Origin: Okapia johnstoni
Taxonomy: Eukaryota; Chordata; Mammalia; Artiodactyla; Giraffidae
NCBI GenBank assembly: GCA_024291935.2
Contig: CM044316.1
Span: 2,410,501-2,474,500 of the forward strand
Direction of reading: 5' to 3'
DNA length: 64,000 nucleotides
A model generated the notes under the pieces. It saw nothing but the letters and a program-made list of their open reading frames with translations, was not told where the DNA came from and searched no databases. A program made the position numbers and the translations under genes. Shown one piece after another: positions 1 to 64,000 of the stretch (the stretch's first letter is position 1; each line of letters starts with the position of its first letter).

Positions 1-50
1 CGCAGGTCACCCGCTGGGTGTCCAGGCCCACACTCTGGACTATGGATCCC

Positions 51-18600: not shown

Positions 18601-21600
18601 CCTCCAGTTTGTCAGGTGCTCACTCCCTCCACTCAACCCTGGCACCCACCTGTGACGTCCAGGTGGAAGGAGACCTTCTGGCCCCCGGCCTCGCAGCTGT
18701 ACTCCCCGGCATCCGCCTTGCCCGCCTGCTGTACCACCAGCTGCCGGGTGCAGCCCGTGGCCTCCACAGTCACTTTCGCACTCGAACTCAGCTTCTTCCC
18801 ATCCTTGTACCATGTCACCTCCGTCTGGGCCTGGGCCACCTCGCAGCTCAGCATGGTGCGGGCTCCTGCTTTGGCCTGTACCTCCCTGTGCACTGCCTGC
18901 TCCTTGGCAAACACCACCACAGGCTCTGCAGACAAGGAAGGATGCACAGGGTCAAAGACACCATCCAAGACAGGAATCCAGCAGTATGGAAAGAAGGCCT
19001 GGGCAGATAGAAAGGGGGACTGGACACAGCTCCAGGCTCTGTGTTGGGCCACAAGTGCCCACAATTTATCTATACATTCTGTGCATGCTGTTCCAAGTGG
19101 GGACTCTGAAAGATTTCTTCCCTGCACATATTCCTCTAGGAAAGGAACTGTGGGATCAGGATGCATGTGCCCTTCACCCTTCCTAGATGACGCAGTCTTT
19201 CTCACATGACTGTACAGAGAACATCCCCACCCACAGTGCAGGAGAGTTCACGCTCCATGCTCTCAGTGCTGTCAACTGGTGGCAAGCCAGTAGGGAGCAT
19301 CGTTGTACTTCCTGAGCTTTCTTTTGCACAGTACTAACGACTTCCAAAGTGAAGCACCATTTCTGATCTTTTTGGCTTTTGGTGTTTGCCCTTCTGCAGT
19401 ATCACTGCCAAACTTTTACCCCATTATCAGTAGCATTGTCTGTCTTTTCCTTTTTCATTTTCAGGAGCTCTTCATATATTTATATTAAAACTTTGACAAT
19501 TATGGGTGTGTCAATATTTTCTCCATCTTTGCCACTTGCTTCTTTATTGTTTATGTGTCTTCTGTTGACATAAAGGTCTGAGTTTTAACACCGGCAAGTA
19601 TGTCAATTGTCTTTTGTGCGACCCTCTTACACTGTTCGTGGGAATGCAAACTAGTACAGCCACTATGGAGAAAAGCGTGAATATTCCTTAAAAAACTGGG
19701 AATAGAACTGTCATATGACCCAGAAATCCCACTGCTGGGCATACACTGTTTAATAGCTAGGACACCTGATGCAAAGAACTGACTCATTGGAAAAGACCCT
19801 CATTCTGGGAAAGATTGAAGGCAGGAGGAGAAGGGGATGACAGAGGATGAGATGGTTGGATGGCATCACCAACTCGATGGACACAAGTTTGAGCAAGCTC
19901 TGGTAACTGGTTATGGAGAGGGAAGCCTGGTGTGCTGCAGTCCATGGGATCACAAAGAGTTGGACACATCTGAGTGACTGAACTGAACTAAGGATATGGA
20001 AGCAACCTAGATGTCCACTGGCAGATGAATAGATAAGGGAGATGCGGTACATATACACAATGGAAAAATATTCGCTATAAAAAGGAAAGCATTTGAGTCA
20101 GTTCTAATTAGATGGATGAAACTGGAGCCTGTTATACAGAGGGGAAGTAAGTCAGAAAGAGAAACACCAATACAGTATACTGATGCATGTATGTGGAATT
20201 TAGAAAGATGGTAACAGCGATCCTATGTGCAAGGCAGCAAAAGACACACAGATGAAAAGACTTTTGGACTCAGTGGGAGAAGGTGAGTGTGGAAAGATTT
20301 GAGAGAACAGCATTGAAACATGTATATTATCATATGTGAAATAGATGACCAGTGCAAGTTCGATGCATGAAGCAGGGCACTCAAAGCCGGTGGCTCTGGG
20401 ACAACCCAGAGGGATGGGGTGGGGAGGGAGGTGGGAGTGGGGTTCAGGATGGGGGGAACACCCCATGTGCACCCATGGCTGATTCATGTCAATGCATGGC
20501 AAAAACCACCAGAATATTGTAAAGTAAGTATCCTCCAATTAAAATTAATTAATTTTAAAAATGTATCCTTTGTGATTAGTATATTTATATACTGCTTAAA
20601 TCTTTTATTACCATCAGGTCATTAAATAATCTATATTAGCTGTTAAGAGCTTGTTTTAACTTTTATATTGGTGTCTCTAACCCACCTGGAGTTGGTGTCC
20701 ATGTGTGCTGTGAGGGAGACGTCAATTTTTATTATAGAGGAATAGATATAAATAGACATATATATGGTTATATGGTATTAGCACAGTTTATGAAAAAATT
20801 ACTCTTTCTCTACACCACACACTGGCACTACATAGTTAAAAAACAGAAAAGGGACAGGAGAGTTTGGTTAAATGCAGGGCTGTTTCAGAGATCACTATTC
20901 TATTTCGTTGTATTTACCCTTGCACTGAAACCCAGCTGTTCACTACTGTAATTTTATAATGTTTGATATCTTACAGATCAAATGCTCTCATTTTACGAGT
21001 GCTTGCGTTCCACTTGACCCTTGTAATCAACTTGTCAAATTTGACACACCTACAAAAGATTTGGATTTTGATTCACCAATGTGCTCAGTTGTGTCCAGCC
21101 CTTTGCAACCCCAAGGACTGTAGTCAGCCAGGCTCCTCTGTCCATGGAATTCTCCAGGTAAGAATACCTGGACTGGGTTTCCATTTCCTTCTCCAAGATT
21201 TTGAGTAGGAATGGACATCTTTGTGCCTTCCATGCATAGCTCACCATTCATTTAGATCTTCATTGTCTCCCTAAAATGTTTAATAATATCCTCTCTTGGA
21301 AGCCTTAAACATATTTTATTAGACATGGAGTTAGAAGCATGATACTTCTGATGTTATTGTAATTGTCTTAAAATATCATTTCTGACTCTCAGTTGCTAGT
21401 ACATCAACATAGAAGTGTTTTCTGTGCATTTTGTATGTGGTGATTATTCTTAACTTTCTTACTAACTTTAAAAATTCTTTCTATTTTCTGCATTAATAAT
21501 ATTATCACCTAGGAACTCCACTTTTTGCTTTATCTAAATTTTACTTTATATTTTTCCTGATAGTCTCTACAATATTGGACATAAGTTGTGATAGTGGAGC

Positions 21601-24600
21601 CACTTGAAATGCTCCAATTAAAAGAAAAGCTTTCACGGTTTCTCTGTAAGTGTGATGTTTGCTGCTGTTTTCTTTAGTACTCTGTACCAAATTAAGGAAC
21701 TATCCATTTATTACTAGTTCAGTAAGAAGTTATCAAAATTAATATATGCTGTATTTTATAAAACTCAATCTAGCTATGATGCAAATATTTTATCAAGCAC
21801 TTTTATTCTGCATTTTTAAGGCAGAAATATGCCTTTTCTCCTTTAGCTTCTTAATGTTATAGACTGATTTTTCTAATGTTCTGGTGCTGAACAAACCTCG
21901 CATTCCTGGATTAAGATCTTCATGTACTGCTCCATTCACTTTGCCAATACTGTGTATAGGATTTTGATACTGACATCCAAAAAGACTGGCCTGTAATTTC
22001 TATTATTTATACTTTGTCAGATTTTGGTATCAATGCTATGGTAGCTACATAAAATGAGTTAAAGAGTGTCTGTCTATATATACACACACACACACACACA
22101 CATATAAATAGACATACACACACACACATACACACACACATATATATATATCCCTTTTCCATTCTCTTAAAGAATCTCCAAGAATATGAAATAGTTTTCT
22201 AGAATATTTCATATAATTTGCCAGTAGAGCCACTGAGCTTAATCTTGTTCTATGAGATTATTTTATTATGGTTCCATTTATGTAAAAGATGATAAGACTG
22301 TTCAAGTTTATTTCTTCTTGTGTAAGTTTTGATATAGTTTTCTAAGAATTGGCCAATATTTCAAAACTCTTCAAATTTACTTGTGTGAAATAATATTATA
22401 TTTTATTATAATAATGTCAAAATGATTCACAGTGGATTTCTTGGTATCTATATACACCTATGAATCAGTATATACTAATACAATATCAAACTGTTATGTG
22501 GTGGCACTTAGGAGTCAATATAGGACCACAGCCCATCTCTGTTTGAAGTTAACCTCTCTTAACAAAAGGAAACTAAAGTTAGTCTGCAGACATCTCTGTG
22601 AACCACCTCAGAAGGTACAGAAAGACACGTGTCATTAGGAAATGCTATGAAATAAATACTGCTCTACCAGTCAGTAGTGCTACTATAGTACCTCACCTTT
22701 AAGAAAGTCTATTGGTGTAGGGAAAGCTCCTTAATACTCTCCATTTCTAAATTTATAAATCAAGCTCCATAGGGAATACTGACACAGAACGTACTAACTG
22801 AAGGCAAAAGAAAACCAAAATTTGCTTTTAAAAGAATGTACCATATCTCAGAGGTGCATATCAAAGGCACGAATCCTCTTCCCTTGGTTTACTTTGCACA
22901 GACGTTGCAACAGAACAGGAACCTAGATTTTGCAACATTTAGGTTCACAGATAACTTCTATAACCATGTGCAAGAAAGAAATAGTGTCCCATAAAAACTA
23001 AAATAAATTCAGACTTGAGGTAATGCCAAGTATGATTATGTGGCTGAAATCTTCTTATCAGGTTCAAAAAACTACAAACATCTCTGAATAGGGAGAATCC
23101 TCATACAATGCTGGGAGAGAGAATTTGGATATTGCTAAAACATCCAAAAAGTACATTCACATATCCCGAGGTGAGAGATATCTGGTCTACTTGAGACCCC
23201 AAGGGCCAGATGGAGCCAAGGTCCTGGACACTAAAGATCACCCAGAACCCTACAACACAGAAACACCACTGGTGGTGCATGAGAGAGGCCCCTCCTCCCA
23301 CACACACCATTCCCATCCAGTGTCCCTGGGATCAGCCATGAGCATGAGAATGGGAGGTGGGAAGATAGGAGATATGAAGAGGTTAAACGCAATGAAAAGA
23401 TCCTGTCATGGCTGTAAGTCAGCCAAATCATCTCCAAAAAGGGCTAATTTAGATCCTCTCAAATAACTGACCTGTGACACCCAGGTGGAAGGAGACCTTC
23501 TGGCCCCCGGCCTCACAGCTGTACTCCCCGGCGTCCGCCTTGCCCGCCTGCTGCACCACCAGCTTCCGGGTGCAGCCCTTGGCTTCCACACGCACTTTCG
23601 AGCTCGAACTCAGCTTCTTCCCATCCTTGTACCACGTCACCTCCGTCTGGGCCTGGGCCACCTCGCAGCTCAGCGTGGTGTTGGCTCCCGCCACAGCCTG
23701 CACTTCACTGCGTGCTGGCTGCTCCTTCGCAAACGCCACCATGGGCTCTGGGGACAGAGGGATACATAGGGTCGGAGACACCATCTCAGTCAAGATGCAG
23801 CACTGGGGAAGAAGGACTAAATGGTGAAGCAAGAGAACTGGAAACTTCTCTAGATCCTGGCTAGCTATGTGGCGTGGAAAACCCTACCTCCTTCTCACAG
23901 AGTAACTGCATTTTACCTATGTATTCTCCCACTGATCCATGGGTGTTGTTCCAGGTGAAGACGCTGCAAGAGCACACCTCTCTGGGAGAACTTCAGGGTC
24001 CTGAGGCATTGGTTCCTCAACCTCTCTAAATGAGCACCCAAAGGTCAGTGTAGGATCACAGCCACAGTTATCTGATCTTAACACTCTCCACAGGACAGCT
24101 CAGGGAGGGGTGCACTCCCACCTGCAGTGCAGAAGCGATCTTGAGCCTCCACCCTCTGGTCTACGCTCAGCGTGTCAACTGTGGCCAGTTGGGTGGGGGT
24201 GAAGTTGTGTCCCCTTGGCTACCTCTTGCATGGCACTCATGACTCAGAAAGTGGAGCAACCTTTTCAGTCTTTTGGCCATTACGGTTTGCGCTCCTGTGG
24301 TGTCACTCTTCAAGTGTTTCAGCTGATTTTCAGTAGCGTTTTCTGTCTCCCCCATATTCATTCTCCAGATCTCTTTATGTGCTTAAGTGCTAGAGATTGG
24401 ACAAATGATGCAGTGTACGAATACTGCACCCATCTGCATAACTTGCCTTTTCACTCAAGTTTTTGTTTTAAATCTGTTTATTTATTTGGTTTCACCACAC
24501 AGCTTGTGGGATCTTAGTTCCCCAACAATGGATCAAACCTGTGCCCCCTGCAGTGGAAGCAGATTCTTAACCACTGGACCGCCAGGGAAGCCCCCAAATT

Positions 24601-57600: not shown

Positions 57601-59844
57601 TGCAGGAGTGTGATAACATTAAAAAGAACTCTTTAATATAGTTTGCTAAGAATTTTATGGCACAAACTGATGCTCAATCTTATCAAACATTTTGTCCCAA
57701 TGTATGACCTTCAAGTTCAATCAACTATTTGATTTTGTACTCATGGAGATGATCACATCTTTCTGCATTCAATCCAATGTCAAGCTTTCTACCTATCAAC
57801 GATGCCAACATTGACACCACGTGCAATCCTGAACTATGACTTTCACCATTCACCACTCGTGGATACACTGCTGAGTTCTTTTTATTAACATTTAATATGT
57901 GATTTTGACCTTGACACTCACAGTAGATTTTCTGGAATTTAATTCTCCCTGCCTTTCTAGTGCGATTTTGGTATCAACGCTATATTCTGGACATGAAGGA
58001 GTTATGGAGGATATCTCATTCTTCCCTCTCTAGGACCATCTCCATAAGCATGAAATAACAATTTTCCAAATATTTTGCATACCTTACTAGAAAACTACAG
58101 GGCTGAGAAGATTTTTCATCACTGGTACTACTGATTCACAAGTCACACACTCTTTAAATTTACTCTGTCTTCGTGTGTCCAATTATCACATAATCTCCTA
58201 GGATTTAGCCATACATCACAATTTTTCAAAGGTTTTACCATAAAATACTTTCTAATGTGCTCCAAAAAAGCCACATTCTAAGAGATGCATGGTGGGACCT
58301 GGGGTATATACACACCCACACATCCTGCTACACTGGCATAGTCTCAAACTCTCACATGCTGGCACCTAGGAGTCAATGTGGCATGGTAGCCACCCCTATT
58401 CAGTATGAAGACTCTCTTCCCAGAAAAAGCATAACCTGATTTCTCAGACTGCCTGACATTTCAGCCATGAGAAAGAGACACTCAATGACCACAACGAAAA
58501 TGCAAGGAAATAAAGGCTGCTTTGCCAGTCAGAGGCTGCTAGGACAGTAACTGCTTATTAGCAACACCTACTGATGTGGCAGAAGAGATTTTTTCCTTTC
58601 CATTTCTAAATTCATCAACTGATGCCAAGCAGAATACTGACCTGCAACATACAAACTTGTTCGAAGACAAACACAAAATTATATCTGATCTAAGAAGATC
58701 ACTCTAAATAGCACAGGTGACTATCAATAATCCTTTCTTTCCTCCCTTTGTAAGGCATGCCTGTATACTAAGTCGCTTCAGTTGTGTCCAACTTTTTGTG
58801 ATCCCATGGACTGTAGCCCATCAGACTCCTCTGTCCATGGTATTCTCCAGTCAAGAATACTGGAGTGAGTTGCCGTGCCCTCCTCCAGGGGATCTTCCCA
58901 AACCAGGGATCAAACCCACATCTCATGTGGCTCCTACATTGCAGGCAGATTCTTTACTGCTGAGCCACCAGGGAAGCCCCACTCTGTAAGGACCTGACAA
59001 CAAAACATGGTTGTTGTTTTTTCTTGCAACATACAGGCTACTGGAGCTTCTATATCCAGAGAAAGGAAGAAGTGGCATCCGAGAAACCTCAAATTCAATC
59101 ATCCGAAGTTCACTCCTGCAAGAATTCCAAGTAGGATTGTGTAGCCAGTATTTCCCCTAACCTGGAATCCATCAAATTGAAACACCCAAGAACTTGCATG
59201 AGGTACCAGATGAGGGCATGTGCTAGCTCTCAGGAAAGACAGATGATGGGAGGAAAGTCATATACTCCCAGGTCTACCTCAGCCCCCAAGCATCAGGGAG
59301 AGTCAGAGTCCCGACACCAAGAACACAAGCAAGGTTCTGGGAAGGTACTAAGACAGTGTGACTGAGTCTCCCTGCCTCCAAAGAGGTGGACAGAAATGGC
59401 CCTTCTTCACTGAAGGTGCTTCCTCCCCATCCACCCTTCCTCAGGGCCAAGATGATATGAAGATGAGACATTAAAGGCTACAGGCGAGTACACACATCTG
59501 TTGAGACTAAAAGCCATCCCTTCATCCTCTGCACACAGGCTAGCTCAGCATCCTCCTCAAGGACTGACCTTTGACGTCCAGGTGGAAGGAGACCTTCTGG
59601 CCCCCGGCCTCGCAGCTGTACTCCCCAGCGTCCGCCTTGCCCACCTGCTGCACCACCAGCCGCCGCCCACGGCCCGTGGCCTCCACACGCACTTTCGAGC
59701 TCGAACTCAGCTTCTTGCCATCCTTGTACCACGTCACCTCCGTCTGGGCCTGGGCCACCTCGCAGCTCAGCGTGGCACTCGCCCCCGCCACGGCCTGCAC
59801 TTCACTGCGTGCCGGCTGCTCCTTGGCAAACACCACCGAGGGCT
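430..59844 (-). CDS. OBSCN: Obscurin, tandem-Ig segment (partial gene, 29 coding exons)
   Basis: Minus-strand exons, each coding one Ig I-set domain, run from 59844 down to 430. All have AG acceptors and GT donors in phase 1, so they join into one frame of 27 Ig domains. Array domains with FAKEQ and WYKDGKKL motifs, followed by domains such as [13 protein letters not shown] and the CELSK..PVEWRKG type, match my memory of vertebrate obscurin. Obscurin is a very large muscle protein that links M-band/Z-disc titin to the sarcoplasmic reticulum. The start codon, the later FN3/SH3/DH-PH part and any kinase domains are outside the window. OBSL1 is unlikely because it has far fewer Ig domains and no FAKEQ array. 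Confidence 0.93.
841..920 (-). pseudogene. Second relic of an X1-type Ig exon
   Basis: This is the copy of the 51-130 relic, exactly 790 bp further on. The acceptor, the frame ([16 protein letters not shown]) and the in-frame TGA at 841-843 are the same. The shared stop shows the exon was already dead before the unit was duplicated. Confidence 0.7.
1235..1498 (-). CDS. OBSCN: Obscurin Ig exon X2
   Basis: This exon is 264 nt with acceptor cctcag|CTCTGCC and donor AGCG|GTAAGG. It opens [17 protein letters not shown] and has Cys 25, PVEWRKG and [10 protein letters not shown], so both core cysteines are kept. It lies between X1 and X3 in the local tandem array and differs from them at scattered positions only. 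Confidence 0.92.
1824..2087 (-). CDS. OBSCN: Obscurin Ig exon X3
   Basis: This exon is 264 nt with acceptor gttgcag|CTCTGCC and donor AGGG|GTAAAG. It opens [17 protein letters not shown] and contains [14 protein letters not shown] and [15 protein letters not shown]. It is the most N-terminal member of the X1-X3 trio. Only a 108-bp intron separates it from X4. A long open frame runs across that intron, but good splice sites on both sides argue against read-through being the normal form. Confidence 0.92.
2196..2462 (-). CDS. OBSCN: Obscurin Ig exon X4
   Basis: This exon is 267 nt (89 codons) with acceptor gtccacag|CTCGGCC and donor AAGG|GTAAGC. It opens [18 protein letters not shown]. The B-strand Cys precedes [16 protein letters not shown], and the F strand reads DSGQYFCCF with a double cysteine. 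Its opening and its GAATLRC block place it as a relative of the X1-X3 type that has diverged. Confidence 0.92.
2463..3396. other. Intron X5-X4
   Basis: This is a 934-bp intron. Its right two-thirds hold an MLT1-like LTR and a short A-run near 3124. The remaining sequence (2463-2670 and 3060-3396) shows nothing I can assign. Confidence 0.8.
2672..3055 (+). repeat. MLT1-like LTR (MaLR, ancient)
   Basis: The order of segments (a TGTTATGG-type start, 'tatttggagatagg', 'ggtgtccttacaag', 'gaccaggtgaagacacaggg', 'gatggccatctaga' and a terminal 'ccacccagtctgtggtac') is that of MLT1-type solo LTRs of mammals. No internal coding region is attached. It is an old, non-functional intronic copy. Confidence 0.75.
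3397..3663 (-). CDS. OBSCN: Obscurin Ig exon X5
   Basis: This exon is 267 nt with acceptor tctgcag|AGAAGCC and donor CATG|GTGAGC. It opens [19 protein letters not shown]. The core is [21 protein letters not shown], with an extra Cys just before the Trp, followed by [11 protein letters not shown]. Both core cysteines are present. Confidence 0.93.
4055..4327 (-). CDS. OBSCN: Obscurin Ig exon X6 (F-strand Cys absent)
   Basis: This exon is 273 nt (91 codons) with acceptor tctgaag|GCCAGAA and donor ACAG|GTAGGT. It opens [17 protein letters not shown] and has a double Cys in ATFCCRIS, then PVHWFLDK. The F strand reads [10 protein letters not shown], so the usual Tyr-x-Cys is replaced by Ile-x-Phe and the canonical B-F pair cannot form. 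It resembles the Cys-less class seen at X9, X11, X13, X15, X17 and X19. Confidence 0.92.
4877..6230 (-). mobile_element. BovB LINE, 5'-truncated
   Basis: The + strand is the reverse complement of BovB. At the low end is the 3' tail as a (TTGTTC)n run and the 'gttcagtc..taagtcgtgtctgactc' end. The minus strand then codes RTE reverse transcriptase pieces ([34 protein letters not shown]). The perfect 12-bp target duplication TAGATGGCACAT flanks it at 4865-4876 and 6231-6242. The frame is broken many times, so the copy is dead. An internal piece has been replaced by a SINE end at about 6041-6079. Confidence 0.93.
6429..6638 (-). mobile_element. Bov-tA SINE
   Basis: The reverse complement of the tRNA-Glu-derived ruminant SINE is recognisable from 'gttagtcactcagtcgtg', 'ctctgtccatggg', 'gatactggaat' and the end 'gagctaccacggaagcccc'. 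Confidence 0.88.
6650..6837 (-). mobile_element. CHR-type SINE
   Basis: The sequence has the landmarks 'tgtgggatcttagttccccaa', 'cagggattgaaccca' and 'aaccactgtaccaccagggaagtc', typical of the artiodactyl CHR-2 family. The A/T-rich tail lies at the low-coordinate end. Confidence 0.75.
7539..7805 (-). CDS. OBSCN: Obscurin Ig exon X7
   Basis: This exon is 267 nt with acceptor ccaccag|AAAAGGC and donor AAAG|GTTAGG. It opens [18 protein letters not shown]. The core is [20 protein letters not shown] and the F strand is [11 protein letters not shown]. Both cysteines are kept. Confidence 0.93.
8022..8288 (-). CDS. OBSCN: Obscurin Ig exon X8
   Basis: This exon is 267 nt with acceptor tttccag|AGAGGTC and donor GAAG|GTAACC. 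It opens [19 protein letters not shown]. The core is [21 protein letters not shown] and the F strand is [11 protein letters not shown]. It is a classic Cys/Trp/Tyr-x-Cys I-set domain. Confidence 0.93.
8289..9007. other. Intron X9-X8
   Basis: This is a 719-bp single-copy intron. I see no repeat family, RNA gene or extra exon. The open frames on either strand here lack codon bias and domain content. Confidence 0.7.
9008..9280 (-). CDS. OBSCN: Obscurin Ig exon X9 (F-strand Cys absent)
   Basis: This exon is 273 nt with acceptor gcccacag|AGCTGCA and donor AAAG|GTGGGT. It opens [18 protein letters not shown]. The core is [18 protein letters not shown]. The F strand is [11 protein letters not shown], where Val replaces Tyr and Phe replaces the Cys. 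It starts the alternating series that runs to X20. Confidence 0.92.
9281..10303. other. Intron X10-X9
   Basis: This is a 1-kb single-copy intron, GC-rich toward X10. I recognise nothing in it beyond the splice sites. Confidence 0.7.
10304..10570 (-). CDS. OBSCN: Obscurin Ig exon X10
   Basis: This exon is 267 nt with acceptor cctgcag|GGAAGCC and donor CATG|GTGCGT. It opens [18 protein letters not shown]. The core is [20 protein letters not shown] and the F strand is [10 protein letters not shown]. This is a Cys-containing ('even') member of the alternating series. Confidence 0.93.
10678..10944 (-). CDS. OBSCN: Obscurin Ig exon X11 (F-strand Cys displaced)
   Basis: This exon is 267 nt with acceptor ctggcag|AACGGAA and donor AAAG|GTGAGG. 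It opens [18 protein letters not shown]. The core is [20 protein letters not shown]. The F strand is DRGTVCISS: the Tyr position is Val, the Cys position is Ile, and a Cys sits between them pointing to the other face. This is an 'odd' member of the series. Confidence 0.92.
10994..11103 (-). repeat. 55-bp tandem duplication across the X12 donor site
   Basis: 10994-11048 and 11049-11103 are the same 55 bp with two mismatches. Each copy holds the last 16 nt of exon X12 plus a GTAGAG donor, so there are two candidate donors, before 11088 and before 11033. Use of the second would add 55 nt and shift the frame. Confidence 0.93.
11088..11354 (-). CDS. OBSCN: Obscurin Ig exon X12
   Basis: This exon is 267 nt if the first donor (GAAG|GTAGAG, before 11088) is used. 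That keeps phase 1 and the family length, which is why I chose it. The acceptor is ccgcag|ACATTCC. It opens [17 protein letters not shown]. The core is [20 protein letters not shown] and the F strand is [11 protein letters not shown] second identical donor lies 55 nt further into the intron. Confidence 0.92.
11473..11742 (-). CDS. OBSCN: Obscurin Ig exon X13 (F-strand Cys absent)
   Basis: This exon is 270 nt with acceptor atccacag|AGCAGTC and donor TCAG|GTGAGA. It opens [19 protein letters not shown]. The core is [20 protein letters not shown]. The F-strand region is TGPVHFTIG, with no Tyr-x-Cys and no D-x-G before it. It is one of the more divergent domains here. Confidence 0.9.
11908..12124 (-). 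mobile_element. Bov-tA SINE in intron X14-X13
   Basis: The sequence is the reverse complement of Bov-tA ('ctctgtccgtggga', 'caagaatactggagcgggttgcc', 'cttcccaacccaggg', 'ctttaccactaatgccacctggga'). It is well preserved and therefore fairly young. It ends 76 bp from the X14 donor. Confidence 0.9.
12201..12467 (-). CDS. OBSCN: Obscurin Ig exon X14
   Basis: This exon is 267 nt with acceptor acccccag|AGCTGCC and donor GAAG|GTTTGG. It opens [20 protein letters not shown]. The core is [20 protein letters not shown] and the F strand is [11 protein letters not shown]. It is an 'even', Cys-containing domain. The GTTTGG donor is weaker than its neighbours. Confidence 0.92.
12468..13214. other. Intron X15-X14
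   Basis: This is a 747-bp intron, pyrimidine- and C-rich on the + strand between 12640 and 12900. No transposon or exon is recognisable. The open frames here are low-complexity shadows. Confidence 0.7.
13215..13319 (-). CDS. OBSCN: Obscurin Ig exon X15b (3' part of a split Ig domain)
   Basis: This exon is 105 nt with acceptor ttcccag|GAAGGAC and donor AAAG|GTAATG. It codes [20 protein letters not shown] and the final strands of the domain. The F strand [11 protein letters not shown] has no Cys. Added to the 162-nt X15a it gives exactly 267 nt, the normal domain size. That confirms the two exons make one Ig domain. Confidence 0.92.
13439..13600 (-). CDS. OBSCN: Obscurin Ig exon X15a (5' part of a split Ig domain)
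   Basis: This exon is 162 nt with acceptor gccccag|GCCGGAA and donor GAAG|GTGAGA. It opens [18 protein letters not shown]. The core is [20 protein letters not shown], ending in the RIRQEG turn. The extra intron (119 bp) is phase 1 and falls between strands C' and E. This sequence is close to what I remember of human obscurin. Confidence 0.93.
13755..13908 (-). CDS. OBSCN: Obscurin Ig exon X16b (3' part of a split Ig domain)
   Basis: This exon is 154 nt with acceptor cttcacag|GACAATG and donor CAAG|GTGAGG. It begins [17 protein letters not shown] and has the F strand [11 protein letters not shown]. With X16a (113 nt) it totals 267 nt. The internal intron is phase 0, unlike the phase-1 split in X15. 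Confidence 0.92.
14017..14129 (-). CDS. OBSCN: Obscurin Ig exon X16a (5' part of a split Ig domain)
   Basis: This exon is 113 nt with acceptor cttcccag|AGCTGCC and donor GAAG|GTGCGT. It opens [18 protein letters not shown]. The core is [18 protein letters not shown], where the exon ends directly after the C-strand Trp-Leu-Lys. The intron to X16b is 108 bp. Confidence 0.92.
14321..14587 (-). CDS. OBSCN: Obscurin Ig exon X17 (both core Cys absent)
   Basis: This exon is 267 nt with acceptor ccccgtag|TGCGCCA and donor ACTG|GTGGGT. It opens [18 protein letters not shown]. The B strand is [16 protein letters not shown], with Val where Cys is usual. The F strand is [11 protein letters not shown], with Phe. 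Trp and D-x-G are kept, so the fold is probably normal without a Cys pair. Confidence 0.92.
14865..15131 (-). CDS. OBSCN: Obscurin Ig exon X18 (B-strand Cys absent)
   Basis: This exon is 267 nt with acceptor actccag|AGGCTCC and donor GAAA|GTGAGC, the only donor here without a final exonic G. It opens [18 protein letters not shown]. The B strand is [16 protein letters not shown] without Cys. The F strand is [11 protein letters not shown] with Cys. X17 and X18 share the unusual TMEVEL B strand. Confidence 0.92.
15132..16186. other. Intron X19-X18
   Basis: This 1.06-kb intron contains a Bov-tA SINE remnant and otherwise nothing I can assign. Confidence 0.75.
15335..15465 (+). mobile_element. 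Bov-tA SINE, 3' part
   Basis: The + strand reads 'ggcatggcaacccactccagtatttttgcctggagaatccc' and later 'ggggtcacaaagagtcgaacatgactgagcg', the 3' half of Bov-tA. It is followed by a short CA run. The tRNA-like head is missing. Confidence 0.87.
16187..16456 (-). CDS. OBSCN: Obscurin Ig exon X19 (F-strand Cys absent)
   Basis: This exon is 270 nt with acceptor gtccacag|TACCCCA and donor CGAG|GTGAGC. It opens [18 protein letters not shown]. The core is [20 protein letters not shown]. The F strand is [11 protein letters not shown] with neither Tyr nor Cys. It is the most N-terminal 'odd' domain of the alternating series. Confidence 0.93.
16620..16886 (-). CDS. OBSCN: Obscurin Ig exon X20
   Basis: This exon is 267 nt with acceptor cccctag|AGGTGGC and donor ATTG|GTATGC. 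It opens [18 protein letters not shown]. The core is [20 protein letters not shown] and the F strand is [11 protein letters not shown]. It is an 'even', fully canonical domain. Confidence 0.93.
17040..17324 (-). CDS. OBSCN: Obscurin Ig exon X21 with Pro/Glu/Arg-rich lead
   Basis: This exon is 285 nt (95 codons), the longest in the window, with acceptor cacccag|AGCCAGA and donor GAAG|GTGAGT. It starts with [16 protein letters not shown], a charged, proline-rich lead of about 16 residues that other exons lack, followed by [16 protein letters not shown]. The B strand has no Cys. The core has [12 protein letters not shown] and the F strand has [10 protein letters not shown]. It joins the FAKEQ array to the mixed domains and may act as a hinge (inference). 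Confidence 0.92.
17325..18649. other. Intron R1-X21
   Basis: This 1.3-kb GC-rich intron marks the change from the mixed Ig exons to the repeated FAKEQ exon array. No repeat family or exon is recognisable. Confidence 0.7.
18650..18925 (-). CDS. OBSCN: Obscurin FAKEQ Ig exon, array copy R1
   Basis: This exon is 276 nt (92 codons) with acceptor gtctgcag|AGCCTGT and donor ACAG|GTGGGT. It opens [20 protein letters not shown]. The core is [20 protein letters not shown] and the F strand is [20 protein letters not shown]. It is the most C-terminal and most divergent intact member: it has [15 protein letters not shown] where the R4-R8 copies have [14 protein letters not shown]. Confidence 0.94.
19604..20550 (+). 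mobile_element. L1 3' end (ruminant), interrupted by BovB
   Basis: The + strand carries the L1 ORF2 end and 3' UTR ('accctcttacactg..gtgggaatgc', 'tatgacccag..atcccactgctgggc', 'ggaagcaacctagatgtcca', then the A/T-rich tail 'cctccaattaaaattaatt'). It is 5'-truncated and non-coding. Confidence 0.88.
19764..19990 (+). mobile_element. BovB 3' end nested in L1
   Basis: The sequence 'gatgcaaagaactgactcattggaaaagacc' through 'tgagtgactgaactgaac' is the BovB 3' end. It splits the L1 between 'agctaggac' and 'aggatatggaag', which are adjacent in intact L1. The short repeat AGGAC/AGGAT at both borders fits a target duplication. Confidence 0.87.
21079..21200 (-). mobile_element. Bov-tA SINE fragment
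   Basis: The sequence 'tgctcagttgtgtccagccctttgcaacccc' to 'ccatttccttctcc' is the 3' half of Bov-tA in reverse. The tRNA-like head is missing. Confidence 0.82.
22075..22151. repeat. CA/TA microsatellite
   Basis: Two CA runs are separated by 'tataaatagacata' and flanked by TA runs. The sibling units lack it. Confidence 0.95.
23472..23747 (-). CDS. OBSCN: Obscurin FAKEQ Ig exon, array copy R2
   Basis: This exon is 276 nt with acceptor gtccccag|AGCCCAT and donor ACAG|GTCAGT. It opens [20 protein letters not shown]. The core is [20 protein letters not shown] and the F strand is [11 protein letters not shown]. It keeps EAKGCTRK, like R1's GCTR, placing it between R1 and the R4-R8 group in sequence as well as in position. 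Near the end it has HLGV where the others have HLDV. Confidence 0.94.
24474..24597 (-). mobile_element. CHR-type SINE
   Basis: The landmarks are 'cttgtgggatcttagttcccc', 'tggatcaaacctgtgccccctgcagtgg' and 'aaccactggaccgccagggaagccc'. Confidence 0.82.
24690..25960 (-). repeat. Ancient L1 fragment of the duplication unit (R3-R2 intron)
   Basis: This is antisense L1 ORF2 sequence on the + strand ('ctctaacccacctggagttcc', 'ctgaattcagtttccaagtattttg', 'tccgattttggtgtccatgttatg'). It aligns block by block with 20640-22420 but is shorter. Confidence 0.75.
27132..27412 (-). pseudogene. OBSCN: FAKEQ Ig pseudo-exon, array copy R3
   Basis: The homology to R1/R2 is clear ([21 protein letters not shown] core with several substitutions), but three lesions disable it. 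There is a 5-nt gain before the FAKEQ start, giving 281 instead of 276 nt and a frameshift. There is a TAG at the Gln of the GGQKV segment. The donor reads CACAG|GGGGTT instead of |GTCAGT. The acceptor AG survives. It should be skipped. Because flanking exons are phase 1, loss costs one domain but not the frame. Confidence 0.9.
27701..27810. repeat. 45-bp minisatellite
   Basis: A 45-bp unit starting 'cttcctagatgaagccagag' begins at 27701, 27746 and 27791 (third copy partial). Each unit is itself two similar halves of about 22 bp that share 'cttcctagat'. Other array units have a single half at the matching place (for example near 19180), so this is a local expansion. Confidence 0.92.
28184..28331 (+). 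mobile_element. BovB 3' end
   Basis: The sequence 'gatggctggatggcatcactgactcaatgga' to 'gactgagtgactgaactgaactgaa' is the BovB 3' terminus. It is severely 5'-truncated. Confidence 0.88.
29648..29820 (-). mobile_element. BovB 3' end
   Basis: The reverse complement of the BovB terminus is seen ('cagttgctcagtcgtgtccaa', 'ggactgcagcacaccaga', 'ttgagtcagtgatgccatccaaccatctcatcctctg'). Confidence 0.87.
30000..30216 (+). mobile_element. Bov-tA SINE, complete
   Basis: This is the full sense element. The tRNA-like head 'gggcttccctggtgactcagatgg' and B-box 'ggttcaatccctggg' are followed by the body 'ccactccagaatttttgcc' and the end 'gaaatgactgaatgacta'. Confidence 0.92.
30287..36790 (+). mobile_element. 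Near-full-length L1 (dead), interrupted by BovB
   Basis: A GC-rich 5' UTR runs from about 30287 to 31250. An ORF1 region with coiled-coil-like codons and 'agagtcccatataggataag' lies at about 31430-32050, and the ORF2 endonuclease/RT region at 32100-35800. A 3' UTR ends in 'acattgtaaagcagttgtatccca'. Without the 553-bp BovB the element is about 5.9 kb. Both reading frames are broken repeatedly; the longest ORF2 pieces are under 130 codons. Confidence 0.85.
36184..36736 (+). mobile_element. BovB 3' part nested in the L1 3' UTR
   Basis: The + strand codes the BovB C-terminus ([34 protein letters not shown]) and ends 'gactgagtgactgaactgaactgg'. The exact 10-bp duplication ATGGCAGAAA flanks it at 36174-36183 and 36737-36746. 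The two L1 halves join perfectly when it is removed. Confidence 0.94.
36952..37145 (-). mobile_element. BovB 3' end with 12-bp target duplication
   Basis: The sequence '(ttcag)n tcgctcagtcatgtccaact' to 'ctcctgcccccaatcc' is the BovB terminus in reverse. TTAGTTATCTGT occurs at 36940-36951 and again at 37146-37157. Confidence 0.93.
37628..38400 (+). mobile_element. DNA transposon remnant (Tigger/Tc1-like), interrupted by BovB
   Basis: The left end is 'caggcacaccttgttttattgtactttg' and the right end is 'cccataatatctcctaggcatgtct', which are imperfect inverted repeats (CAGGCAYACC type). TA lies next to both ends. The body ('atcgaaggtttgtgacaaccctgcatc', 'acagactacaatatagtgtaaacataac') matches a common mammalian non-autonomous family. 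I am unsure of the family name. Sibling units appear to lack it. Confidence 0.65.
37822..38116 (+). mobile_element. BovB 3' end nested in the DNA transposon
   Basis: The sequence 'aggaaataagtcctgaatattcattgg' to 'gagaaactgaactgaac' is sense BovB terminus. It separates two halves of the transposon that are contiguous in other copies of the family. Confidence 0.85.
38898..39173 (-). CDS. OBSCN: Obscurin FAKEQ Ig exon, array copy R4
   Basis: This exon is 276 nt with acceptor gtccccag|AGCCCTC and donor ACAG|GTCAGT. It opens [20 protein letters not shown]. The core is [20 protein letters not shown] and the F strand is [11 protein letters not shown]. It belongs to the EATGRGR group (R4, R6, R7, R8). 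A private change gives QHAGKADAG where the others have QQ. Confidence 0.94.
39259..39287 (-). pseudogene. Duplicated 5' tip of a FAKEQ exon with acceptor
   Basis: Some 85 bp upstream of R4 (gene sense) lies a second copy of the acceptor (gtccccag) and the first 29 nt of the exon (PSVVFAKEQ frame). It joins directly to sequence normally found elsewhere in the unit. No donor follows at a useful distance. It is probably a by-product of a small rearrangement. Confidence 0.85.
39882..43892 (-). mobile_element. BovB with inverted 5' part (twin priming), itself split by L1
   Basis: 39882-40585 is the BovB 3' part in minus orientation. About 40590-42086 plus 43849-43892 is the BovB 5' part in plus orientation, coding RTE endonuclease/RT pieces ([38 protein letters not shown]). 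The direct repeat TTGATGGTT at 39873-39881 and 43893-43901 brackets the whole, so it was one insertion event. A stop ends the RT frame at 41581. Confidence 0.9.
42087..43838 (+). mobile_element. L1 with inverted 5' part, nested in BovB
   Basis: About 42890-43838 is a sense L1 3' end with poly(A) at 43826-43837. About 42087-42885 is L1 RT-region sequence in the opposite orientation; the minus strand has a 218-codon open frame with [28 protein letters not shown] flanks it at 42077-42086 and 43839-43848. BovB is continuous without it. The minus frame is well preserved, which suggests a fairly young insertion. Confidence 0.92.
44080..45600 (-). repeat. Ancient L1 fragment of the duplication unit (R5-R4 interval)
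   Basis: This is antisense L1 ORF2 sequence ('aggtctctgacctgcctcgagtcagttc', 'tgctgaattcagtttactattattttgtggc', 'cagattttgatatcaatgatatg'). Confidence 0.75.
46192..46456 (-). pseudogene. OBSCN: FAKEQ Ig pseudo-exon, array copy R5
   Basis: This is a strongly decayed copy. The best block is 'actcagcttcttcccatccttataccac' ([12 protein letters not shown] on the minus strand), with weaker matches on both sides such as 'gtgctccttgaacaccactgagg'. It is about 265 nt long against 276, with indels, so no frame survives. The acceptor has become tgctgt|AGTCC and has lost its AG, and no donor is visible. R5 lies only about 0.7 kb from R6, so most of that unit was deleted. Confidence 0.8.
47144..47419 (-). 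CDS. OBSCN: Obscurin FAKEQ Ig exon, array copy R6
   Basis: This exon is 276 nt with acceptor gttcccag|AGCCCTT and donor ACAG|GTCAGT. It opens [20 protein letters not shown]. The core is [20 protein letters not shown]. The F strand [12 protein letters not shown] has Arg where the other copies have Gly. By my count 15 of 276 nt differ from R8. Confidence 0.94.
48280..49418 (-). repeat. Ancient L1 fragment of the duplication unit (R7-R6 intron)
   Basis: This is antisense L1 ORF2 sequence ('gaggttctaacccatcctgagttgac', 'gatgctcaatgttatcaaactttttg'). It continues at 52190-52560 beyond the insertions ('agtagattggtctggaatttcattctcc'). Confidence 0.75.
49419..50020 (+). mobile_element. L1 3' end
   Basis: The sequence 'cactgtttacaacagctaggacatggaagcaa' to 'gtatcctccaaataaaattaatt' is the terminal 600 bp of a ruminant L1, ending in an A/T-rich tail. 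Confidence 0.9.
50021..52110. other. 2.1-kb block absent from sibling units, origin unknown
   Basis: The block directly follows the L1 tail and stops where unit homology resumes near 52110. It contains a short stretch like a common old mammalian repeat ('caaagcactgttagatgctggggatacaaagg', about 50856-50890). I find no gene in it: the longest open frame, under 100 codons near 51100-51400, has no domain features. Confidence 0.6.
52563..54398 (+). mobile_element. BovB LINE, 5'-truncated
   Basis: This is sense BovB with RTE RT pieces ([45 protein letters not shown]) and the full 3' end ('ggacatggctgaacaacaact'). The RT active-site region reads RYTYDY instead of a YADD-like motif, and several stops follow, so it is dead. 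TTTAG flanks it (52558-52562 and 54399-54403). The sibling unit near 58200 shows the empty site. Confidence 0.9.
55556..55831 (-). CDS. OBSCN: Obscurin FAKEQ Ig exon, array copy R7
   Basis: This exon is 276 nt with acceptor gtccccag|AGCCCTC and donor ACAG|GTCAGT. It opens [20 protein letters not shown]. The core is [20 protein letters not shown] and the F strand is [18 protein letters not shown], with Ile where the others have Val. By my count 10 of 276 nt differ from R8, nine of them transitions. Confidence 0.94.
56690..58260 (-). repeat. Ancient L1 fragment of the duplication unit (R8-R7 intron)
   Basis: This is antisense L1 ORF2 sequence, uninterrupted here ('ctgaggtttctaacccaacatgagttgac', 'gatgctcaatcttatcaaacattttg', 'agtgcgattttggtatcaacgctat'). 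Confidence 0.78.
58756..58981 (-). mobile_element. Bov-tA SINE
   Basis: This is the reverse complement of Bov-tA with its head at the right ('ctgagccaccagggaagcccc'). CTTTGTAAGG before and CTCTGTAAGG after (58982-58991) form the target duplication with one mismatch. The matching position in the R7-R6 unit is empty. Confidence 0.92.
59569..59844 (-). CDS. OBSCN: Obscurin FAKEQ Ig exon, array copy R8
   Basis: This exon is 276 nt with acceptor gtccccag|AGCCCTC and donor AAAG|GTCAGT. It opens [20 protein letters not shown]. The core is [20 protein letters not shown] and the F strand is [11 protein letters not shown]. Private changes are QQVGKADAG and a final HLDVKG where other copies have HLDVTG. 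It is the most N-terminal domain in the window. Confidence 0.94.
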
Positions 59845-61168
59845 CTGGGGACACAGGGATACACAGGGTCAGAGACCCCATCTCAGTCAGGAAGGCAGCC
59901 CTGGGCAAAGAAGACCTGGATGGGGAGCCAAGGAGGAGGTGTGTGTGGTGGCAGTGGAGTCGAAAACTTTTCTGGGCCCTGCACCAGCCCTGTGCTCTGC
60001 AGAGGTCCCTGCCTTTCTCAGCAAAAGTCACACAGTTTATGCATTCACCTCTGAGTCCAAGTGAGCTGGTCCAGCTGGCAGGGTGGCCACTGGAAAATAC
60101 TTCTCCCATGCTCATGGCATCTGCAGGGTCACGAGGCAAGTGTTCCCGAACCTTGCTAGATGGTGCCCTAGTCTTCTCCATTTATGCAGGAACTTTTCGC
60201 CTGCAGTCCACGGAGATGGCTGAGGCTCGGTGCCCTTGCCGACTGTTAACTATTGTCAGCTGGCGGCAATCTGGGAGGAGTGCTTCCATCCCTTTCCGTG
60301 GCTTTCTTTGTCATTGAGCAATAAAGAAGCTGAGTACCTTTCCTCTTAGCACTGGGCTCACCATTCCTATTTTCTTCTTCATGGTGACACAATTCAAATC
60401 TTTTGCCCACCTACAAATAGTAGACTCTTCTTCAATTCAACTCTGGCCACTCTTTATACCTTTACATACCAGGGAATGACACATACGTAGGATTTAAGGA
60501 TACTTCCAACTGTGTGACTGGCATTTTCATTCTCAGATCCAGTCCTTTGATAAATCAAAGATTTTCCTTCCAACAGTTTCACAATGTCCATTTCAGCTCT
60601 TTTGGGCATAGATGATTTGTGTTCCATTTAAGAAATTTCTCCTTGTGCTGTCTTTAAAGAAACCACATTATCATCTGAGGGGTTTTTTGGGGTTTTGCCT
60701 CTTACCCTGAGTTTTCTAACCCACTCTGAGCTGACTTCTGTGTGTGGTGTGAATTGCAATTTAATTTTTCCGTATGGTTCAGTGGTCCAACACCATTTAT
60801 TAGACAACATCCTTCCTTGAGTTCTCCAACAGATAACACAGTAACAATGGAAAGGTGTAGGGGGATGGAGGGATGGGTGGTGCAGGAAGCTATTTATGCA
60901 AGGAACTGTTTCTGAGCTCACCATTCGGTTCCTCTGATGTGGAAACTATGACTGCACTGGGATCCCCTTATCTTGAAAACTACAGCTTTAGGATAATTCC
61001 TGATTCATGATAAACAGTCAGGCTGGTCCCCCCCGGAGCAGGGATCACGCGCCCACACACACGTGGCCTTGCAGCCGTGTGCAGAGCTGGCATGCATGGG
61101 TGTGTCTGCTTCTGCAGCCAAGAGTGTCCCAAGCAGGAGCCTGCTTTTGTAGACAGCTCTGTGGTTTC

Positions 61169-61394: not shown

Positions 61395-62145
61395 CAGGTC
61401 CCAGTAAATGTCCCCACCATGCTTTTCTTCAAGAAAACAGTGTATTGGCTGTACCTTGCCTTTGAAATCGGCCTATTATTCTTCCATCAGACCACCCAAA
61501 AAAGAAAATTCTATTTTGATTGTTAATAAACATCTTTGACTTTTTCCCTCAGATTGCTCCATCTAATGCAACTTCCCACTGTCTCTCAAGAATCTTGAAT
61601 ATAATTTCTCCACACACAGCCTCTTGGTGACTTTGAACAGACCTGGAATTAGAAACACGATACAACTGTCCTAGTCCAACTCTTAACACAAATTTCATTC
61701 TTCAAGCGTTCCTAACAAGGACTTAGATGTAGGAATTATTTCAGTATGTATGCTAATTTTTTTCCTCAAGAATCACTCACAGTCTAATAATTTATCTTCA
61801 GATTTTCTGAGTTGATAATCACATCATCAGCAAATTTCACCTTTAGTTTTTCAAAATCATCTGCTGGTGATTTTATTCTCCTCTTTACTGGACTCAGGGG
61901 TTGCACTTGCCTCCGTGTATTATCCCTCACTCAAAGATTTGCAGGTAAACCTTAAGCGGGATGATCTTATCACTGTTGTTCTTTTTGCAGGAATTTTATT
62001 ATGTTAAAAGAAAAAATATCTTATACAGTTTCCCAAGTATTTTATGGCAGGGACAGACACTTGATGTTATCAAATATTTTGTCTTGATGTATGATGTTTG
62101 AATTTAATTAACCATTTGATTCTGTACTCATGGACATAATCACAT

Positions 62146-62216
62146 TTGGGATCTTCATGGAACAAGGATTAAACCACTGTCCCTGGCATTGGCATTCTGG
62201 ACCACCAGGGAAGTCC
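62146..62216 (-). mobile_element. CHR-type SINE fragment
   Basis: The sequence 'gggatcttcatggaacaaggattaaacc' to 'ggaccaccagggaagtcc' is the end of a CHR-type SINE. The sibling units lack it. Confidence 0.7.
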
Positions 62217-62566
62217 TTGCACTCTATTTCTTAATATCAAGCTTTCTATCTATTAATATATCCAATGTTAAGCCCATTGTGCAACCGTAGACAACGACTT
62301 TTATCACAGATCCCTACTCCTGGATACACTGATTAATTCATTTTGCTAACAAATATTATGATTTTTTATTTTGGCCTTGATATTTGCAGTAGATTGGTCT
62401 GGAATTTGATTCTCCCTGCCGTTTCTGGGTCATTTTGGTATTGATGCTATGTTTTGTATATGAAGAAAGTTACAGAGTCTATCTCCTTTTTCTCTCTCTA
62501 GGATCATCTCCACAAGCACAGAATAACAATTTTCTAGGACATTTTGTACAGTGTTCCAGAGAACTG

Positions 62567-62778
62567 GTTTCCCTGGTGGCTGGGCAATAAGGAATCTGCC
62601 TGCAATGCAGGAGATGCAAGTTCGATCCCTGGGCCAGGAAGATCTCCTAGAGAAGGAAACAGCAATCCACTCTAGTATTCTTACCTGGGAAATCCCATGG
62701 ACAGAGGAGTGGGGCAAACTACAGTCCACAGGGTCACAAAAGAGTTAGACATGACTTGCAAATAAACAACAACAAAAG
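62567..62778 (+). mobile_element. Bov-tA SINE
   Basis: This is a sense element ('tttccctggtggctgggcaataaggaatctgcc' to 'gagttagacatgacttgc') with an A-rich tail (aaacaacaacaaaa). CCAGAGAA is repeated at 62556-62563 and 62779-62786. The sibling units show the empty site ('ccagagaactac'). Confidence 0.92.
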
Positions 62779-64000
62779 CCAGAGAAGTCCAGGGCTGAGA
62801 AGACTTTTCATTACTGGTCCTACTGATTGACACGTCTTACAACACTTTGACTTCTCTCTGTCTTCTTGTGTTCATAGAGCTTACAATGATTTAGCCACAT
62901 TTCACAAGTTTTTAAAAGTTTTACTTTCAAATACTCTCTAATGCGCTCCAAAAAACACATTCTATATAGATGAACTGTGGGATCTGAGGTATCTAATCAA
63001 ACCCACAAATCATTCTATATTGGCACAGTCTCAAATTACGTGTCAGCACCTAGGAGGAAATGTGAAATGGCAGCCCATCCCTCTTTGGCACGAGACTCTC
63101 TTCCTGGAAGAAGAATAAGCTGATTCTAAGACTGCCCTATCTTCCAGTCACAAGACAGAGACACTGATCATCAGGAAACTGCAAGGAAATAAGCACTGCT
63201 TTGCAGTCAAAGGTTGCTAGGACAGTAACTCCTTCTTAGTAAAGACTATTGACGTGGCAGAAGTGACTGTGTTCCTTTCTGTTCCTAATTCCCTCGGCAG
63301 AATGCAAACAGGAGTACTGATGGGAAAATCCAACCTGTTTGAAGACAGAGGCAAAAGCATCTTTTATCTAAGATCAGCCTAAATAGCACAGATGTCTCTC
63401 TACCAATCAGCCTTTTTTCTTCCCTTTGAAAAGATGTGACAACAAACATGGGCCTATTTCCTGCTACCTCTAGGCAACTGGAGCTTCTATATCCAGGAAA
63501 AGGAAAGGCCTCCCAGAAATCTCAAATTTCATCATCCAAAGTTCACCCCTAAGAGAATTCCAAGTAGGATTGTGTGGCCAATATTTCTCATGATCAGGGA
63601 TCCACTGAATTGAAACACCTCTTGACAGCTGAGAACTGGCATGAGGTGCAACATGAGGGAATGTGCTGGGTGTTAAGGAGAGACTTACAATGGGAGTAAA
63701 GTCACATATCTCCAGGTCTACCTCAGCCCCCAAGCCCAAAGAGACGCAGGGTCTCAACACCAGGAGTAACCGGCAGGTTCTGGGCAGGTGCTGGGACAGT
63801 GTGACTGAGCCTCACTGCCAGGAAAAGATGTGGGCAGAAATGGACCCTCTTTGTTGCATACACACCTTTCCCAATCACCCTCCCCCAGGGACTGAGATGG
63901 GACATGGAAGACAGGGAGGCTTGAAGAGATGAAGGTTACAGGCAAGTGCACACAAGTTTGGGGAGGCAGGTAGCCAGTCCTCTGATCGCTTGCACAGGCT

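What the first reader, a model, noticed from the sequence alone, without database searches (positions are those of the whole stretch)
18650..64000. Exon-by-exon amplification of one obscurin Ig domain as a ladder of about 4-kb genomic units
Eight copies of the same 276-nt FAKEQ exon, plus a ninth implied at the edge, each sit in a homologous 3.7-4 kb unit once younger insertions are removed. For example, R8-R7 starts are 4013 bp apart, R3-R2 3660, and R2-R1 4822 with a 0.95-kb L1 end. Because every exon is phase 1-1, each new unit adds one in-frame Ig domain and can lengthen the protein. Human obscurin, as I recall it, has a similar run of FAKEQ domains; the copy number and state in ruminants may differ.
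Basis: partly seen in the sequence, partly recalled or inferred. Interest (0 to 1): 0.8.

Follow-up and report, generated by a model that had tools for sequence, protein, structure and literature searches.

The report
Repeated muscle-protein exons copy each other
This stretch of a ruminant's obscurin (giant muscle protein) gene holds eight copies of one exon on an old ladder of duplicated DNA, and several working copies seem to have overwritten one another by gene conversion while the DNA between them drifted apart.

Summary
The ladder is real. The window's minus strand carries eight copies of the obscurin FAKEQ Ig exon: six intact (276 nt, phase 1-1) and two dead (R3, R5). A 29-nt stub lies beside R4, and a ninth exon is implied just past base 64000. 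The seven long introns chain collinearly in 21 of 21 pairs. Reversed sequence gives almost nothing, though shared repeats inflate some chains and one pair does not beat its reverse-complement control. 'Each unit adds an in-frame domain' fails for two of eight copies; two intervals are contracted.

R4, R6, R7 and R8 are about 95% identical over the exon plus 53-80 intronic bases, then fall to about 70% or less in the next 40. R8 and R7 share 80 of 80 bases of upstream intron, so coding selection cannot be the cause. Exon-limited gene conversion explains it.

In 33 tetrapod obscurins plus the window, the nearest relative is in the same species for 314 of 420 FAKEQ domains, against 166 of 1226 other Ig domains; human, macaque and the window are exceptions.

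A new, clear case of a known process.

The parts
59569..59844 (-). R8: intact FAKEQ Ig exon, 276 nt, phase 1-1
   Evidence: AG acceptor and GT donor, open frame
55556..55831 (-). R7: intact FAKEQ Ig exon, 276 nt
   Evidence: AG acceptor and GT donor, open frame
47144..47419 (-). R6: intact FAKEQ Ig exon, 276 nt
   Evidence: AG acceptor and GT donor, open frame
46187..46456 (-). R5: dead FAKEQ exon with several indels; low end approximate
   Evidence: nhmmer score 76, E 6.4e-23; stops in all three frames; GC 0.42, 2 CpG
46457..47143 (-). Contracted intron between R6 and R5 (687 nt): both ends of a normal unit intron, about 3 kb missing
   Evidence: Chains to the R8-R7 intron at its positions 1-525 and 3545-3636 only
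39259..39287 (-). R4 stub: first 29 nt of a native exon, preceded by an acceptor
   Evidence: splicing here would read FAKEQWENA then stop
39227..39258 (-). 32-nt filler between the stub and the R4 block; resembles intron about 174-218 bp upstream of R6, R7 and R8
   Evidence: Best match outside itself: rc 16369-16408, 83%
38898..39173 (-). R4: intact FAKEQ Ig exon of the R6-R8 type in a diverged intron context
   Evidence: dS 0.047-0.131 to R7, R8 and R6; identity falls outside -53..+282
27132..27412 (-). R3: dead FAKEQ exon (donor GG, 5-nt longer 5' end, TAG)
   Evidence: GC 0.547, 2 CpG
23472..23747 (-). R2: intact FAKEQ Ig exon, 276 nt
18650..18925 (-). R1: intact FAKEQ Ig exon, the last of the array in this window
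   Evidence: in three of four Bos proteins it is closest to the last copy (8-9 differences, against 13 or more at other positions); the fourth has no such copy
59528..59924 (-). Homogenised patch around R8 (about -80 to +316 from exon start)
   Evidence: R8-R7 intronic segment: 1 mismatch in 120 sites against 71.6% background; 0 of 2000 shuffles reach it
55515..55911 (-). Homogenised patch around R7
47102..47496 (-). Homogenised patch around R6 (about -77 to +317)
   Evidence: R8-R6 8 mismatches in 118, R7-R6 11 in 136 intronic sites; 0 of 2000 shuffles each
38892..39226 (-). Homogenised patch at R4 (about -53 to +282)
   Evidence: 51 of 53 upstream, 263 of 276 exon and 6 of 6 donor bases match R6; 5 of 17 and 6 of 18 just outside
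62883..63996 (-). Intron that follows a further FAKEQ exon lying just beyond the window's right edge
   Evidence: Aligns to the sequence from 33 bp after the R7 exon, 1144 columns, 73.9%

Best explanation
The region is the FAKEQ Ig-domain array of a ruminant obscurin gene (minus strand). SHOWN: units of about 4 kb, each with one 276-nt phase 1-1 exon and its intron, were duplicated in tandem in at least two age classes (introns about 60% and about 73-75% identical). The array also contracts and decays: two dead exons, one stub, one intron lacking about 3 kb. SHOWN: R4, R6, R7 and R8 are homogenised over patches of roughly 335-410 bp that include 53-80 intronic bases upstream and stop abruptly. 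INFERRED: the mechanism is non-allelic gene conversion between exon copies. Protein selection keeps exons alike enough to pair, conversion then re-synchronises them and their edges, and the drifting introns stop the heteroduplex, so exons become islands of homogenisation. INFERRED, less sure: R4 received its exon by repair that began inside the native exon at a short homology, copied from an R6-like unit, and rejoined at the exon's 3' end. INFERRED: the result is a run of similar, frame-neutral Ig domains whose number and inclusion can change protein length.
For: Ladder: 21 of 21 long-intron pairs collinear, near-empty reversed control. Patches: R8-R7 differ at 0 of 80 intronic bases upstream of the exon but at 17 of 40 in the next 40; a max-segment test on intronic sites alone was reached by 0 of 2000 shuffles in each of the three pairs tested. 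Synonymous divergence is 0.047-0.186 among R4, R6, R7 and R8, against mostly 0.2-0.5 K2P in the flanking introns of R6-R8. R4: 29 of 30 sites from -54 to +267 that separate R6-8 from R2 are of the R6-8 type, and of 30 such sites from +282 to +392 only 9 are (16 R2 type, 5 neither). Dead copies R3 and R5 have 2 CpG each against 13-23 in intact exons, as expected if they dropped out. Protein level: nearest neighbour in the same species for 313.6 of 420 FAKEQ domains (33 species plus the window) against 166.1 of 1226 other Ig domains; Desmodus 13 copies 99.7%, Vulpes 14 copies 99.1% identical. Unlabelled protein hits show the same exon motif in several intron contexts.
Against: No DNA of another species' array could be read, so tract edges are shown in one sequence only. 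The window's own copies have their nearest protein relatives in other species (0 of 6 within), as do most human and macaque copies (about 1.1 of 12 and 0 of 11) and most of Castor and Catagonus (fractions 0.23 and 0.33), so protein homogenisation is not universal. Elsewhere it could come from recent unit duplication; protein data cannot separate the two. Some intron chains include shared repeats, and one pair does not beat its reverse-complement control. The flank upstream of the exon may carry some splicing constraint. Short-read misassembly was not excluded.
Confidence: 0.82

Rival explanations
1. Only tandem duplication: R4, R6, R7 and R8 are simply recent whole-unit duplicates, and exons look alike because proteins are conserved.
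For: Introns 9-8, 8-7 and 7-6 are a younger class, 73-75% identical; dN/dS is below 1 in all 15 pairs.
Against: High identity is confined to the exon and a short collar; R8-R7 0 of 80 intronic bases differ and then 17 of 40; low dS; R4 has no comparable intron similarity to R6-8.
Confidence: 0.06
2. Splicing or other RNA-level constraint on exon edges and silent sites holds the patches identical without conversion.
For: The 63-88 columns just upstream of R2 and R1 are more alike to those of R8, R7 and R6 (74-82%) than the rest of the intron (about 60%).
Against: R6 differs from both R8 and R7 at 7 of 80 sites where R8 and R7 do not differ at all; R1 and R2 differ there at roughly a fifth of sites or more; R4's upstream edge is near -53, not -80.
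Confidence: 0.07
3. R4 arose by a deletion fusing two neighbouring exons (stub plus next exon) rather than by templated replacement of one exon.
For: Stub, filler from upstream intron and full exon lie in the right order; a short CAG match at the junction (read by eye).
Against: Unlabelled proteins P0023 and P0025 have stub-like upstream and R4-like downstream intron around one normal exon, which suggests a single ancestral exon; but this rests on short intron translations and the upstream type recurs in P0008 and P0012.
Confidence: 0.4
4. The near-identical patches are an assembly artefact: repeated exons filled with one consensus.
For: Patches of about 335-410 bp exceed a short read; the assembly method is unknown.
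Against: Exon pairs among R6, R7 and R8 still differ at 10-15 of 276 sites and edges differ between R4 and the rest; similar homogenisation in proteins from many independent assemblies.
Confidence: 0.06

Closest known systems
Human obscurin (OBSCN) tandem Ig region
   Same: Same domain family: PDB 7r67 and 7r68 (obscurin) and 2eo1 (listed as FLJ14124) match at about 1e-40 or better (the top row there is a multi-domain myosin-binding protein C chain); 12 FAKEQ domains in human P0194; a review says the Ig tandem region has 10 exons not used in obscurin A (PMC12812942, passages read)
   Different: Larger predicted arrays in ruminants such as Bos (14) and Ovis (15); human copies show little within-species homogenisation
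Titin and nebulin intragenic segmental duplications
   Same: Repeated exon blocks inside a giant sarcomere gene, with copy-number change (PMC9142044, abstract and outline read)
   Different: Here one exon per unit, units old and diverged, and homogenisation limited to the exon and its collar
Teleost piccolo b zinc-finger exon array (8-16 copies)
   Same: One exon amplified singly in tandem; birth and loss by unequal crossover proposed (PMC3484663, passages read)
   Different: There conversion was not favoured; here intron edges point to it
Dscam duplicated Ig exons
   Same: Tandem Ig-coding exons
   Different: No gene conversion was found there in Daphnia arrays 4 and 6 (PMC3236188, passages read)
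Homogenised protein repeats in general
   Same: Repeats within a protein more alike than their orthologues, in at least one species, in about 30% of repetitive proteins (PMC5120217, passages read)
   Different: There mostly attributed to recent duplication; here the introns separate conversion from duplication

Membership tests
Obscurin FAKEQ Ig domain | Sequence match to obscurin Ig domains of this type | tested here: met
   PDB 7r67, 7r68 and 2eo1; Ovis, Bos and Cervus proteins at 97-99% identity to the R8 domain
Obscurin FAKEQ Ig domain | One 276-nt exon, phase 1-1, usable splice sites | tested here: met
   Met by 6 of 8 copies; not met by R3 and R5
Tandem intragenic duplication | Collinear intron homology between units | tested here: met
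   21 of 21 pairs of the seven long introns, 20 of them above the reverse-complement control; the 687-nt R6-R5 intron matches 4 of the 7 long introns (577, 637, 641 and 105 columns) and 3 not at all
Concerted evolution by gene conversion | Patch of high identity with abrupt edges in non-coding sequence | tested here: met
Concerted evolution by gene conversion | Paralogues within a species closer than orthologues between species | tested here: inconclusive
   Met overall (313.6 of 420) but not in the window (0 of 6), human or macaque; protein level only
Concerted evolution by gene conversion | Phylogenetic conflict of exon and intron DNA across species | not testable with these tools
   No other mammalian DNA was obtained; some searches did not complete, scans found no relatives
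Expressed protein domain run | Exons joined in muscle transcripts | not testable with these tools
   No RNA data; predicted proteins only

The most novel reading that the evidence does not exclude
Across tetrapods the obscurin FAKEQ exons are a self-sustaining homogenisation island: conversion, initiated preferentially in or near the GC-rich exon, keeps recopying 9-17 Ig domains inside single genes while their introns drift. Its strength varies by lineage (nearly complete in fox and vampire bat, stalled in human and macaque), so the giant protein keeps a run of mechanically uniform, interchangeable domains, and dead copies are those that escaped repair.
Probability: 0.35. Interest if true: 0.65.

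Novelty: new member of a known kind. Interest (0 to 1): 0.5.

Why it matters
Homogenised repeats inside proteins are mostly put down to recent duplication (PMC5120217, passages). Here the introns work as a clock that separates duplication from conversion within one gene, so the cause of homogenisation can be tested copy by copy. It also warns that short-read variant calls in this part of OBSCN, a gene studied in muscle and heart disease, may confuse copies, and that exon trees cannot date the duplications. I saw no description of this in my searches for obscurin with gene conversion or concerted evolution: one search found 2 papers, neither on this; one search listed 20 of 407 papers, none on this by title and abstract start, and its word-start matching also takes in 'obscuring'. 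That library lacks most subscription journals.

Tried and rejected
Coding conservation as the cause of exon identity: rejected because the identity runs into introns and stops sharply. A ladder of eight working exons: rejected, two are dead. Searching viral and genome contigs for contaminating relatives with DNA context: 25 and 440 pattern matches, none confirmed. Looking for the letters FAKEQ in papers: 7 hits, none about obscurin by title and abstract start. Paper searches brought background only. HPRC2 preprint PMC13419748 (passages): its 'obscurin' match was the word 'obscuring'. PMC3859903 (passages): general structure background, not used further. PMC4969671 (passages): a GENECONV scan of haplotypes of 42 human genes reported only CYP2A7; OBSCN stands in its abbreviation list; it concerns haplotypes, not exon paralogues, and is no test of this claim. 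Placing the species: of 15 obscurin proteins compared with window 1-17500, the three Bos are closest (85.1-85.4% over 20 exon hits, some read-through included); no FAKEQ copy of 15 artiodactyl proteins matches a window copy exactly (best 2 differences); species not determined. Position-specific orthology of end copies: weak; first copies have a first copy as best other-species neighbour in 9.5 of 33 and last copies a last copy in 4.9 of 33. GC-biased conversion: exons are GC-rich and dead copies poorer, but CpG decay alone would give the same, so not claimed. Dating in years was not attempted. In one search, domains were dropped if their score lay between 60 and 80 bits or below 5, if the match did not span model positions 20-70, or if shorter than 85 residues; identities were counted without gaps.
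Full report
WHAT IS THERE. The gene lies on the minus strand; below, 'upstream' and 'downstream' follow transcription. A model of the intact exon blocks finds eight full-length copies in the window. Six are intact: 276 nt, AG acceptor, GT donor, one open frame of 91 codons entered and left in phase 1. R3 and R5 are dead. R3 has GG at the donor, five extra bases at its 5' end that shift the frame, and a TAG in the domain frame. R5 carries several indels and stops in every frame. A ninth exon is implied beyond base 64000, because the last 1.1 kb of the window aligns to the intron that starts 33 bp after R7.

THE LADDER. I split the region into its introns and chained blastn matches between every pair. 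All 21 pairs of the seven long introns (the 687-nt R6-R5 intron left out) chain collinearly over 1046 to 3659 columns. With the subject reversed, 20 of 21 give nothing and one gives 45 columns. The reverse-complement control gives matches in 14 of 21 pairs (60-1317 columns in one to three pieces), and five tiles of up to 4 kb from the rest of the window give 0-698 columns; I read these as interspersed repeats. One pair (introns 5-4 and 4-3) has 1310 columns forward and 1317 on the other strand, so it does not beat that control, and some other forward chains include shared insertions. There are two age classes: introns 9-8, 8-7 and 7-6 are 73-75% identical to each other, the rest about 60% outside shared insertions. 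Removing the large insertions visible in the chains gives six units of roughly 3.3 to 4.0 kb (my arithmetic). Two intervals do not fit: R6-R5 has a 687-nt intron that keeps both ends of a normal one, and the R4 stub starts 114 nt before R4. So the array has grown, shrunk and decayed.

EXONS AND INTRONS HAVE DIFFERENT AGES. In the aligned R6, R7 and R8 units, intron bins outside the patch are 45-85% identical, but the exon and a collar around it are 90-100%. R8 and R7 have 0 differences in the 80 intronic bases before the exon, 17 in the 40 bases before those, 10 in the 276-nt exon, 4 in the next 54 bases and 12 in the following 40. Using intronic sites only (each gap run counted as one mismatch), the best-scoring segment spans -80..+316 for R8-R7 (1 mismatch of 120 sites), -77..+317 for R8-R6 (8 of 118) and -77..+335 for R7-R6 (11 of 136), against backgrounds of 71.6, 67.0 and 68.7% identity. 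None of 2000 site shuffles reached the observed score in any of these three pairs. Synonymous divergence is 0.047-0.063 among R4, R7 and R8, 0.131-0.186 between these and R6, and 0.237-0.523 for pairs involving R2 or R1.

THE R4 LOCUS. R4 shows replacement most clearly. Its exon and 53 upstream bases match R6 (263 of 276 and 51 of 53), the donor hexamer matches 6 of 6, and identity to R6 then falls to 5 of 17 upstream and 6 of 18 downstream. At the sites where R6, R7 and R8 agree against R2, R4 has the R6-8 base at 29 of 30 sites from -54 to +267 (the exception is +183), but at only 9 of 30 from +282 to +392 (16 are R2-like, 5 neither). Just upstream lies a relic: an acceptor and 29 nt of another FAKEQ exon, followed by a 32-nt filler that resembles intron 174-213 bp upstream of R6 (83%) and the like position of R7 and R8. 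Using that relic acceptor would give FAKEQWENA and a stop. Two readings remain: templated repair that began inside the native exon, or a deletion that fused two exons. Two unlabelled proteins, P0023 and P0025, read from a stub-like upstream intron through one ordinary exon into an R4-like downstream intron. That favours one ancestral exon, but the evidence is short intron translations from unnamed contigs, and similar upstream intron occurs with other downstream contexts (P0008, P0012).

OTHER SPECIES. A second protein search returned the best 120 of 1054 matches, all 4908-7952 residues long and most named obscurin. Domains separate cleanly by score, other Ig domains below 80 bits and FAKEQ above 100. 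Copy numbers in these predicted proteins are, for example, 15 in Ovis, 14 in Bos indicus, Bos javanicus and Cervus, 17 in Manis javanica and Microtus, 12 in human P0194 and 13 in the frog Spea. Taking one protein for each of 33 families plus the window, the nearest neighbour is in the same species for 313.6 of 420 FAKEQ domains, against 166.1 of 1226 other Ig domains from the same 33 proteins. Desmodus copies are 99.7%, Vulpes 99.1% and Lemur 97.1% identical within the species. Against this, the fraction is 0.09 in human, 0 in macaque, 0.23 in Castor, 0.33 in Catagonus and 0 of 6 in the window. These are predicted proteins, one isoform each, and recent unit duplication would give the same protein pattern; the tract evidence is therefore the stronger part, and it rests on one window.

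HOW IT PROBABLY WORKS. Shown: tandem unit duplication; dead and contracted units; exon patches with abrupt intronic edges. Inferred: non-allelic gene conversion. Selection on the Ig domain keeps exons similar enough to pair; each conversion resets exon and collar; the introns drift, so later heteroduplexes stop near the exon, which fits the near-coincident edges in three pairs. Dead exons drop out: R3 is about 74% identical to R8 over the block, and R3 and R5 have 2 CpG each against 13-23 in intact copies. Effect on the protein, inferred: a run of similar domains in symmetric exons that can be skipped or included without a frameshift. The review PMC12812942 (passages read) notes alternative Ig exons in human OBSCN and cites Young 2001 for 10 extra ones; I did not read Young 2001.

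NOVELTY. Repeated domains in giant muscle genes, single-exon amplification and concerted evolution are all known (PMC9142044 abstract; PMC3484663, PMC3236188 and PMC5120217 passages). Searches for obscurin with gene conversion or concerted evolution listed nothing on this subject in the titles and abstract starts shown (2 papers, 20 of 407 listed); the library is partial. I rate it a new, unusually clear member of a known kind.

Noticed in passing
window 434-2430: Another run of obscurin Ig domains: three ending in CGQERTSA or CGQEKTSA (434-2049) and a less similar fourth (2200-2430), close together; possibly another homogenised cluster.
   Followed up: no
window about 49-54 kb, 40-44 kb, 30-37 kb: Large insertions of recurring repeat families, some in inverted orientation, account for the long intervals R7-R6, R5-R4 and R4-R3; families not identified.
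   Followed up: partly
protein hits P0010, P0016, P0019, P0026, P0034, P0049, P0074: One downstream-intron context is joined to several different exon variants in unlabelled contigs, as conversion predicts, though contig chimeras could do the same.
   Followed up: partly
P0231 (Spea bombifrons): A frog obscurin has 13 such domains, 93% alike among themselves but about 54% to the nearest mammalian set.
   Followed up: no
P0194 and P0215 (human, macaque): These two arrays show almost no within-species homogenisation, unlike fox, vampire bat or lemur.
   Followed up: no
window 39288-39330: The R4 stub's acceptor region is about 18 bp shorter than that of R2, as if part of the polypyrimidine stretch were lost (read by eye).
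   Followed up: no
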